64,000 nt of DNA from Panorpa germanica (lineage: Eukaryota > Arthropoda > Insecta > Mecoptera > Panorpidae), in the NCBI GenBank assembly GCA_963678705.1, contig OY783214.1, forward strand, positions 1,922,001 to 1,986,000, read 5' to 3'. Positions 48,001-51,000 of the stretch are shown piece after piece; position 1 is the stretch's first letter; each line of letters opens with the position of its first letter. The notes below the pieces were generated by a model. That model had not been told where the DNA came from. It saw nothing but the letters and a program-made list of their open reading frames with translations, and did not search any database. The position numbers were made by a program, and so were the translations under genes.

Positions 48001-51000
48001 CAGACTACCTACAAGACGTTGAATAATAATCTAACTCCAAAAGAATCTTATAACCTTACAATGGTGCTTCGGGATAATCAAGACATTTTTTAGTCAGGAA
48101 TAGAAGACGTGGGATACACGACATTGGTTGAACATTCAATAAAGGTAAGAGATGCTTAGCCGATTAAACAACCAGCACTATAATTACCGTGGGGAAAGGA
48201 TGACTAAGTTGACGCCATATTCGATCAAATGCTGCGATATGGGATAATAGAATATTCAACAAGTTCCTGGGCATCGCCGATAGTTTTAGTGAAGAAAAAG
48301 GACAGAACTAAGTGATTTTTCATAGACTATCGGAGATTGAACGATGTCAAATTGAAGGATGCATATGCGTTGACTCGTCGTGATAGCCTTTTCAGCGTAT
48401 GAAACGGGTCTCAAAACTACGCTTGGTTTCAGAAATGGATATTGGCAAGTAGAACTTAAACCAGAAAATAAAAAGAAAACAGCATACACGACTGGATAAG
48501 GTCTATGGCAGTTTTGAGTAATGCCTTTTGATCTATGTAATGCCCCAGCAATATTTAAACCACTTCGGGAACATGCTTCGTGTATCTCGACGACATAGTA
48601 GTGCTTGGTAAAGAAACAAAAATTAATTAATAAAATTTGGGAATTGTACTTTAACGATTGAGGGCAGCAAATCTTAAACTAAATACAATGTAATGCATCC
48701 TATGTGCTAAAAAAATAAAATATGTGATATATGCCGCCACTAAAAATGGAATATCTACGGACTTAGAAAAAATAAAAGCCATTCATACCTGGTTCATACC
48801 CACTATCCTGTCGGAAGTGAGGAGTTTCATTGGGTTATTTTCTTGCTATAAAAAATTTGTTCCAAACTTTGCAAAGATTGCAAAACCGCTGTATGAATTT
48901 ACGGAGAAACCAACTACAAAGACGCAACCCATTGTGTGGACACCAATGTGAGCAGTACTCTCACAAATACAACAAGGCAATGAACGCGTAATGGAATACT
49001 TTAAAAGGGTATTCTTGAAGGCTAAGAAGAATTACTGTGTCAGTCAAAAGGAACTTCTGGCAGTCGTTAAAGCTCTAAAACAGTTTAGACACTATTTGTG
49101 GGGTCAGATATTTTGAATTCGTACCGACCACGCTTCGGTAACTTGGTTACCAAATTTAAAAGAGGCTGAGGGACTACTAGCGCTTTTGGCTAGAACATAT
49201 AAGCGAGTACAATTATAAAATCGAGTTCCAGTCAGGACGTTAACACGCGAATGCCGATGTATTGTCCAGAATACCGTGTGCAGCTAACGGGTGTCACCAC
49301 TGTATAGGGAAGGAGGCTCCCCGAATACGAACCCGATGAAGCAATACTTATTTGACATACTCCAGTCTATTTCCAAATGGTGATTACCTCAACTATTATG
49401 ACGCAGAAAAATGAGATCACGACACTTTTAAAAGCTGAAATCAAAATGAGTATGGAATACATCAAGGATGACCTATTCATAGCACCCTCAGTACAATCAT
49501 TTGCGCATTGTGTCGCCAAAGACCTGCATATAAGTAAAGATATTGCAGTAACATTCAAAGCGAAATTCAGAGATCTGAAAAGTCTTCGTATACAAAAAAG
49601 GAAGCTGGGAAAAGTTGCAGTTCTAGAAAGGGATTAAAAATTTATTTATTACCTGATTAAAAAACAGAGGAGTTCCGGAAAGCCATGATCTTTGCCGATC
49701 ATTAGTATCACCACAAGAACACTTCCTACAGTAACAAGTCAAGAAGTTAACCATTTCCCATATAGCTTGCGGACACCAACATTTGACGTAGGCACATGTC
49801 GATAGTCTGCTTAAATACGTGCTTTACGACTTGGAGCTCAACATTCAGGTCTATATCCCAAAACAAGTAACAACCGTTACCGTAAGATACTTGACTGGTA
49901 AAACCGAAGAAACTCAAGTAACAATGAATAACGATACACCTCCACCTGCAGATAGCTCGACTCAAATACTCATCTAATAGAAACTGAACTAGGTAATGCC
50001 GTGGGTTAAGCACAGAAAGAAGATTAGGATCTGGCACTCATCGCGGCATGAAAAAAGACAGAACTTAGAACTCAATGGTCAGAGGTGTCAGCCTATATTC
50101 ATCGCGTAAAACAAAATTGGTCTATGTGAAACTGTCTAGAACTTCACGATGGAAGGCTATATCGATGGTGGAAATTTGAAAACGACAGGCCTCTCATTCG
50201 ACAATAAGCAAATCCCGGATATACTGAAATAGTTACAGGATAATTTCTCAAGTGTACATTTCGAGGTGTATAAAACACAAGAAAAGATACGGCAAAGGTG
50301 GTACTAGCCCCGGTACGGAATTTCAGTGAAACGACTGTCTCGAAATTGTGATACCTGTAAGGGCATCTTTTGAAAGAGTTGGAATCAACATTTTAGGACC
50401 ACAGCCACGGAGCCGAACCGGCAATAAGTACGTGTTGATCGTGGTAGATAACTTCACCCAGTGGCCTAAAATACTTCCTATCTCGAATCAAGAAACGGGT
50501 ACAATTACAAGTAGCAGTTCTTTGTGCAAGAAGTAATATCCCGTTATGGAATTCTCCTAGACTTACGTTCGGATCAAGGACGAAATTAGGCATAAAACTA
50601 TATTACACCTACACCATTACATTCACAGTCGAACGGCATGGTTGAGAGACTAAATTGAACATTAGAAGAATACCTGTCGACATTTGTCAGTGCAAATCAG
50701 GACAATAGGGACGAAATGATACGTCTATTTCTATTAGCATATCGGTCAGCGGTGCACGAAGCAACACGGCAGATTCCAGGCGCTTTGCTACTGGGACGTG
50801 AACTCAGGTTACCCTGTGACATAATGTACGGACCTCCTCTTGAAACAAGACTTATTGGCAACTAAGAATACTGTGAAACCCTAGCACAAGAATTAGAAGA
50901 GATCCACAAATTTACGAGAGAACGCCTATTGTGATGTAATGTACGGATCTCCTGTTAAAAGAAAGTTTATTGGCAACTTAGAATACTGCGAAATCGTAGC

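What the first reader, a model, noticed from the sequence alone, without database searches (positions are those of the whole stretch)
49400..49875. Macro (ADP-ribose-binding) domain embedded in Gypsy pol between RNase H and integrase
The sequence shows the OARD1-like pattern (YIKDDLF, SFAHCVAKDLH, IAVTFKAKF, VAVLERD, FIYYLIKKQRSSGKP) inside a retroelement, after the RNase H tail and before the integrase zinc region. Macro domains of this type are known as ADP-ribosyl hydrolases or readers. A mobile element carrying one could counter host ADP-ribosylation (PARP)-based defence or modify its own proteins; that role is inference. I am not aware of it as a standard Gypsy domain, but it may already be recorded in repeat libraries.
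Basis: partly seen in the sequence, partly recalled or inferred. Interest (0 to 1): 0.82.

Follow-up and report, generated by a model that had tools for sequence, protein, structure and literature searches.

The report
TARG1-like enzyme domain inside Gypsy retrotransposons
Jumping genes in this insect genome carry, inside their replication protein, a domain closely related to the animal enzyme TARG1, which strips ADP-ribose tags from proteins and DNA, suggesting that insects may use such tags against these elements or that the elements need to clean them off themselves.

Summary
Confirmed and extended. Window 49401-49842 encodes a decayed macro domain of the OARD1/TARG1 type between the RNase H and integrase of a dead Ty3/Gypsy copy (E=5.5e-12 to human OARD1). 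It is no stray insertion: 77 of 79 RNase H places of this family in the genome carry the macro just downstream. Eighteen rows lie in open 1389-aa frames, and in 9 of 10 of these sampled the compared 480-496 bp of the LTR pair are identical. An intact relative matches human OARD1 at E=7.3e-42 and keeps residues needed for ADP-ribose binding and catalysis (PMC5928194, PMC8501950). Other lineages also carry macros: B (and, degenerate, D) upstream of RNase H; J, J2, J3 after RNase H or before integrase. The host has its own intron-split OARD1. Most likely the domain is an active ADP-ribosyl hydrolase delivered with pol; activity and target are inferred. Ten searches of the held literature listed no such element; nearest is a sentence on macro-domain ORFs in fish retroviruses. 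New variant of a known kind.

The parts
45684..45921 (+). 5' LTR-like repeat of the element (partial)
   Evidence: 80% identical over 247 columns to 52280-52520; 77% over 130 nt to 51897-52026
48967..49315 (+). RNase H remnant (two frames)
   Evidence: tblastn with L006 RNase H piece, 79% and 70%; PF17917 E=2e-14 for 48952-49113
49401..49842 (+). Macro domain, OARD1/TARG1 type, decayed (49401-49685 frame 1; 49645-49842 shifted frame)
   Evidence: tblastn with P0001 70.5% and 63.6%; human OARD1 E=5.5e-12 for 49356-49634
49843..50586 (+). Linker and integrase (zinc-binding region and core) remnant in several frames
   Evidence: tblastn with an L006 piece that scores Integrase_H2C2 1.4e-19 and rve 1.1e-11
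51866..52026 (+). 3' LTR-like repeat, at about the distance from the macro seen in other copies
   Evidence: 80% over 134 columns, 77% over 130 nt; distance compared by hand
52280..52520 (+). further LTR-like repeat just downstream (nested, tandem or solo; not resolved)

Best explanation
The segment is a remnant of a TARG1/OARD1-type macro domain that is a standing part of the pol polyprotein of several Ty3/Gypsy lineages in this insect genome. In the intact copies it is most likely a working ADP-ribosyl hydrolase. It is made as part of pol, so it would be packaged with reverse transcriptase and integrase, and it removes ADP-ribose that host transferases place on element proteins (integrase, Gag), on host factors at the integration site, or on the single-stranded cDNA itself. 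Shown here: homology, position, copy number, recent spread, conservation of binding and catalytic residues, presence of host PARP-domain genes. Inferred: enzymatic activity, packaging, target, benefit to the element.
For: Intact class-A macro against human OARD1: E=7.3e-42, ungapped over 128 aa. In 21 of 21 class-A macros read, TK (Lys84), CGHD and the loop Gly-Ile are kept (6 of 27 loci left out). In 17 of 17 class-B macros read, TK, ACG and the loop Gly-Ile are kept (3 of 20 loci left out). G43, I44 and G123 are each needed for ADP-ribose binding and activity of TARG1 (PMC5928194, passages). K84A loses activity, including on thymidine-linked ADP-ribose in DNA (PMC8501950, abstract and passages). 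The numbering is anchored by spacing in the ungapped alignment. pN/pS 0.287 for the A macro and 0.171 for RNase H of the same 21 copies; 0.37 for 17 B macros. Macro present in 77 of 79 class-A places. LTR pairs identical over 480-496 bp in 9 of 10 copies. Host PARP domains: 10 rows. In Drosophila parp-1 mutants most of the misregulated mobile elements are up (PMC7712786, passages).
Against: No activity was measured. The D-lineage region has no recognised catalytic or binding motif, yet 25 of its 30 rows have no stop. Lineage J lost the GCG loop, and a further class shows only the C-terminal half (L131): in those the domain cannot be a normal hydrolase, so another role (spacer, RNA binding) exists or it is on its way out. 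Relatives lack it in the pieces read (C, F, G, and the E/H/I lineage; one copy per row), so Gypsy pol does not need it in general. Macro pN/pS is higher than that of RNase H, and low pN/pS among young copies partly reflects shared recent ancestry.
Confidence: 0.6

Rival explanations
1. One reading: the domain tethers integrase or the pre-integration complex to ADP-ribosylated chromatin or PARP-rich sites, much as chromodomains are thought to steer chromoviruses (recalled).
For: It lies next to integrase in class A. The binding-pocket residues are conserved.
Against: The hydrolytic Lys84 is kept in the 21 class-A and 17 class-B macros read, which mere binding would not need. In B and probably D the domain sits upstream of RNase H, away from integrase.
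Confidence: 0.15
2. RNA- or nucleoprotein-binding module: the fold is kept for binding the element's RNA inside the particle, independent of ADP-ribose.
For: TARG1 binds RNA independently of its ADP-ribose pocket (PMC5928194, passages). J, and D if it is a macro, keep the fold without a complete pocket.
Against: A, B, J2 and J3 keep the pocket motifs and Lys84.
Confidence: 0.12
3. Passive captured spacer: host OARD1 was picked up once or a few times and persists with no function, slowly decaying.
For: Degenerate D, pocket-less J and the half-domain class exist; relatives without it exist.
Against: Eighteen open 1389-aa and eight open 1636-1638-aa frames; pocket and Lys84 residues conserved between A and B, which are 45% identical overall; pN/pS well below 1.
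Confidence: 0.1
4. Not a macro domain or not part of the element: chance likeness or a host gene fragment inserted beside it.
For: Pfam gives no hit for the window piece.
Against: E=5.5e-12 and 7.3e-42 to OARD1; one open frame with RNase H and integrase; 77 of 79 places.
Confidence: 0.01

Closest known systems
OARD1 / TARG1 (C6orf130) ADP-ribosyl hydrolase
   Same: Same macrodomain type; ungapped 128-aa alignment, E=7.3e-42; loop Gly-Ile, Lys84, Gly123 and the following Asp kept
   Different: Embedded in a retrotransposon polyprotein instead of free-standing; intronless, whereas the host gene is split by two introns inside the domain
Viral macrodomains of RNA viruses (coronavirus, alphavirus, hepatitis E virus)
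   Same: Virus-encoded enzyme that removes ADP-ribose and counters host ADP-ribosylation (PMC7232374, abstract and section list only)
   Different: Those are of another macrodomain type (recalled); here it is a retroelement and the domain is of TARG1 type
Macro-domain ORFs in fish endogenous retroviruses (Basta 2009, as cited by PMC4977317; one passage seen, the 2009 paper not seen)
   Same: A retroelement carrying a macro domain
   Different: Described as an additional open reading frame in vertebrate ERVs; here inside pol of insect Ty3/Gypsy elements, at two positions. The type of the fish macro was not seen
Orchid Ty3/Gypsy elements with an m6A demethylase (PMC9289625, abstract and one section read)
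   Same: Gypsy lineage that captured an enzyme which removes a host-type modification
   Different: Additional ORF with an RNA demethylase in plants; here an ADP-ribose domain within pol in an insect
OARD1-like phage proteins (Lactobacillus phage LP65 orf36, Bacillus phage G gp437)
   Same: Same domain type in a viral genome, 41% and 36% identity
   Different: Free-standing small genes; dsDNA phages

Membership tests
OARD1/TARG1-type macrodomain | Sequence homology over the whole domain | tested here: met
   E=7.3e-42 over 128 aa for the intact relative; window piece 5.5e-12 over its N-terminal half
OARD1/TARG1-type macrodomain | ADP-ribose pocket residues G43, I44, G123 | tested here: met
   Met in the 21 A and 17 B macros read. 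Not met in the window copy (D at the G43 position; C-terminal half frame-shifted), in J (L at I44, D at G123) and in D
OARD1/TARG1-type macrodomain | Catalytic Lys84 (and Asp125, recalled) | tested here: met
   Lys kept in 21 of 21 A and 17 of 17 B macros read; no equivalent recognised in D
OARD1/TARG1-type macrodomain | Hydrolase activity on ADP-ribosylated substrate | not testable with these tools
   needs a bench assay
Ty3/Gypsy LTR retrotransposon | RNase H followed by integrase in one pol frame | tested here: met
   L006: RT_RNaseH 4.9e-29, H2C2 1.4e-19, rve 1.1e-11 in one open frame
Ty3/Gypsy LTR retrotransposon | Flanking LTRs | tested here: met
   480-496 bp of the LTR pair compared in 10 copies, 9 identical; in all ten the match began at the edge of my 3' piece, so the full LTR was not covered
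Ty3/Gypsy LTR retrotransposon | Named clade by reverse transcriptase phylogeny | not tested
   no reference set of Gypsy clades at hand; only a small RNase H tree of this genome's lineages
Viral macrodomain (counter-PARP factor) | Loss of the activity impairs replication in the presence of host transferases | not testable with these tools
   step referred

The most novel reading that the evidence does not exclude
Insects mark retroelement proteins or single-stranded retroelement cDNA with ADP-ribose as a defence, and Gypsy elements have more than once captured the host's own eraser (OARD1/TARG1) into pol, at two different places, so that the eraser rides inside the particle and cleans the replication intermediate; lineages that escaped by other means then let the domain decay.
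Probability: 0.2. Interest if true: 0.92.

Novelty: new variant of a known kind. Interest (0 to 1): 0.74.

Why it matters
Extra enzyme domains in LTR retrotransposons are considered rare (PMC9289625, abstract) and can point at a host process that limits the element. An ADP-ribose eraser inside pol would make a so far unseen ADP-ribosylation defence against retroelements in insects directly testable. It would extend the virus-versus-PARP theme, known from RNA viruses, to retrotransposons, and it offers TARG1-type domains, intact and decayed, side by side in one genome.

Tried and rejected
Pfam on window pieces gave no macro; the PDB sequence search did. Pfam Macro over the genome found only 2 places, MACROD-like L009 and GDAP2-like L010 by eye; it misses the TARG1 type, so it is no way to count them. 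Scans of viral contigs with the A and B macros found nothing; a profile found 15 loci, which I take for phage from contig size and similarity only. Genome contigs gave nothing (one scan made, a second was allowed). One origin for all element macros: trees put B with host OARD1 (93/95; 93/93; 93/73) and J, J2, J3 apart. Tests of single clades, p-AU: A+B 0.0462 (9 rows), 0.0754, 0.283; A+B+J 0.0504; A+J 0.219; A+J+J2+J3 0.248, 0.0524; with B added 0.0961, 0.121; with B and host 0.119. The number of captures is therefore unresolved. The D region as macro rests on tblastn 2.7e-5 and hhalign E=2e-5, probability 77%; against it, a D query of the genome listed 30 rows, which I read as D copies by their 56-100% identity, and none at the A, B or J places. 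Likely, not certain. No structure was predicted: the rule admits only window proteins and certain loci, and the window piece is half a domain.

Full report
WHAT IS IN THE WINDOW. The window belongs to a 464-Mb genome in 249 contigs. I take it for an insect from 145 matches of the odorant-receptor family 7tm_6 (that this family marks insects is recalled). At about 45.7-52.0 kb lies a dead Ty3/Gypsy copy. tblastn with pieces of an intact relative gives RNase H at 48967-49315, macro at 49401-49685 and 49645-49842 (next frame), and integrase pieces at 49843-50586. The LTR-like repeats are 80% (gapped) and 77% (ungapped) alike, so the copy is old. The 93-aa open piece 49356-49634 matches human OARD1 at E=5.5e-12; Pfam sees nothing in it.

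IT IS A STANDING PART OF THE FAMILY. A search of the whole genome with the window piece gave 139 matches; 150 of 430 candidates were scored, so this is a lower bound. Rows at 56-71% identity, and some more decayed ones, form class A, of which 18 rows have a 1389-aa open frame. Rows near 42% form class B, of which eight have a 1636-1638-aa open frame. In class A the order is RNase H (4.9e-29), macro, integrase zinc region (1.4e-19) and core (1.1e-11) in one frame (L006). An independent RNase H search scored 150 of 1196 candidates. From its 150 rows I picked as class A those of 54% identity and more, 79 places (two rows of one place merged), the window's own among them. In 77 of 79 the macro starts within 1.5 kb downstream on the same strand. 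In 10 copies taken from the 18 rows with 1389-aa frames, 480-496 bp of the two LTRs are identical in 9 and 98.6% identical in one. The full LTR was not covered, because the match began at the edge of the 3' piece in all ten. The family moved recently.

WHAT KIND OF MACRO. The intact class-A domain (P0001) matches human OARD1/TARG1 at E=7.3e-42, ungapped over 128 residues; the next type in the PDB follows at 4.4e-5. Pfam Macro only just reaches its cut-off. Spacing in the ungapped alignment puts TARG1 G43, I44, K84, G123 and D125 on P0001 residues 47, 48, 88, 127 and 129. The TARG1 mutants G43E, I44E and G123E lose ADP-ribose binding and activity (PMC5928194, passages). K84A loses hydrolysis, including of thymidine-linked ADP-ribose on DNA; the writer of that mark in the paper, bacterial DarT, acts on single-stranded DNA (PMC8501950, abstract and passages). 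The role of D125 is recalled. Of 27 class-A loci (without the window's), I read 21; L002, L004, L007, L008, L050 and L052 were left out for stops, shifts, gaps or a partial match, and the class-A loci were not used. All 21 keep TK, CGHD and the loop Gly-Ile. One (L005) has a stop elsewhere, one has a change at the first G of GCG, and one has a change two residues after Ile44. Of 20 class-B loci I read 17 (L014, L019 and L030 left out as partial or shifted). All 17 keep TK, ACG and the loop Gly-Ile, and one has a stop. Pooled pN/pS: A macro 0.287, A RNase H 0.171; B macro 0.37, and 0.27 in five copies. These young copies are not independent, so this supports selection and does not prove it; the macro is less constrained than RNase H.

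OTHER LINEAGES AND A SECOND POSITION. Class B: retropepsin (PF13975 1.2e-6), then macro (L011). RNase H starts about 2.3 kb downstream of the macro in the same 1636-aa frame (C4 copy); reverse transcriptase in between is inferred. D lineage (rows D and K): a macro-like region upstream of RNase H in the same 1599-aa frame (C2 copy), 30 rows, 25 without stops. Homology rests on tblastn 2.7e-5 and hhalign E=2e-5, probability 77%; no catalytic motif was recognised, and a search with D listed none of the A, B or J places. J lineage: RNase H, then a macro that keeps TK but has EFDLD in place of GCGLD (L102); integrase was not found in the piece. J2 (L132) follows an RNase H tail and J3 (L130) precedes an integrase zinc region, both read by eye without a profile; both keep TK and GCGLD. 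J2 and J3 are named apart because their macros are 41-48% identical to J. A further class matches J only over the C-terminal half, 64-75% identical (L131). No macro was found by tblastn or by eye at either place in the pieces of lineages C, F, G, E and H, one copy each. For row I the protease-side piece has none, and the other piece runs into unrelated sequence with only a weak partial hit (E=0.21). E, H and I are one lineage by RNase H. In that tree D/K sit beside macro-less E/H/I, and J beside macro-less C and F, so there were several gains or losses.

ORIGIN. The host has its own OARD1 at C19:723449 (L032), found by a DNA pattern. Its macro is split by two introns with GT-AG ends, and Gly-Ile, TK and GCGLD are present. 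The element domains are intronless. Trees group A, B, host and human OARD1 (89/88; A, B and host 92/89), with B next to host OARD1 (93/95; 93/93; 93/73), and J, J2 and J3 apart. Of the tests for one element clade, one falls just under 0.05 (A+B, 0.0462); the others are at the edge or do not reject (all values in Tried and rejected). Capture from an animal OARD1 is likely for A and B; the number of captures is open. B and host OARD1 also share a short stretch just upstream of the domain (DFLKW / KFKKW; by eye).

HOW IT MOST LIKELY WORKS. As a hydrolase carried with pol. Shown: presence in open frames of recently moved copies, and conservation of pocket and catalytic residues. Inferred: folding and activity inside or after release from the polyprotein, the target, and the benefit. 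Substrates that fit TARG1 are ADP-ribose on acidic residues of proteins (PMC4695847, passages) and on thymidine in DNA (PMC8501950). The latter is attractive because cDNA synthesis passes through single strands. Host PARP domains are present (10 rows, of which three on C9 look like exons of one gene). In Drosophila parp-1 mutants most of the misregulated mobile elements are up, though the authors say this may be indirect (PMC7712786, passages). Against a single rule: J, the half-domain class and, if it is a macro, D lack parts of the active site, so the fold can persist without it.

KNOWN OR NEW. Ten full-text searches of the held open-access library listed no description of a macro domain inside Gypsy pol. 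Several of these searches had hundreds to thousands of hits, of which I saw the top of the listing only. The nearest are a sentence on macro-domain ORFs in fish endogenous retroviruses (PMC4977317, passage) and the orchid Gypsy elements with a demethylase (PMC9289625, abstract and section 12). Repeat libraries and subscription papers were not searchable, so it may be recorded there. Distribution outside this genome was not tested: no eukaryote collection was at hand. Viral and prokaryote collections gave relatives of 26-41% identity that look like phage genes or nothing.

Noticed in passing
window 40994-42552: A giant palindrome: arms 41348-41767 and 41768-42187 are 100% complementary with no spacer, and 40994-41311 / 42235-42552 (100%) continue it. 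Fold-back element or assembly artefact.
   Followed up: no
window 7.9-12.9 kb and 21.7-26.5 kb: A segment duplicated about 13.7 kb apart, pieces 75-89% identical.
   Followed up: no
window 3588-4822: Array of an 85-nt tandem unit, copies mostly 91-95% alike.
   Followed up: no
L032 about 2364-2900: The host OARD1 gene seems to continue into a second, degenerate macro-like exon (by eye).
   Followed up: no
G000:C21 34.9-39.8 Mb: Five of 10 PARP-domain rows of the genome lie on contig C21, four of them in 361-521-aa frames without stops: a possible expanded PARP family.
   Followed up: no
L102, L088, L094 after RNase H: J and the macro-less lineages C and F seem to share another conserved piece between RNase H and integrase (by eye); not identified.
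   Followed up: no
L131 (C5:12829500-12830400): A class of open frames keeps only the C-terminal half of a J-type macro.
   Followed up: partly
G000:C5:16555191, 16561552, 16567913: Three class-A macros spaced exactly 6361 bp: tandem element units, perhaps from LTR recombination.
   Followed up: no
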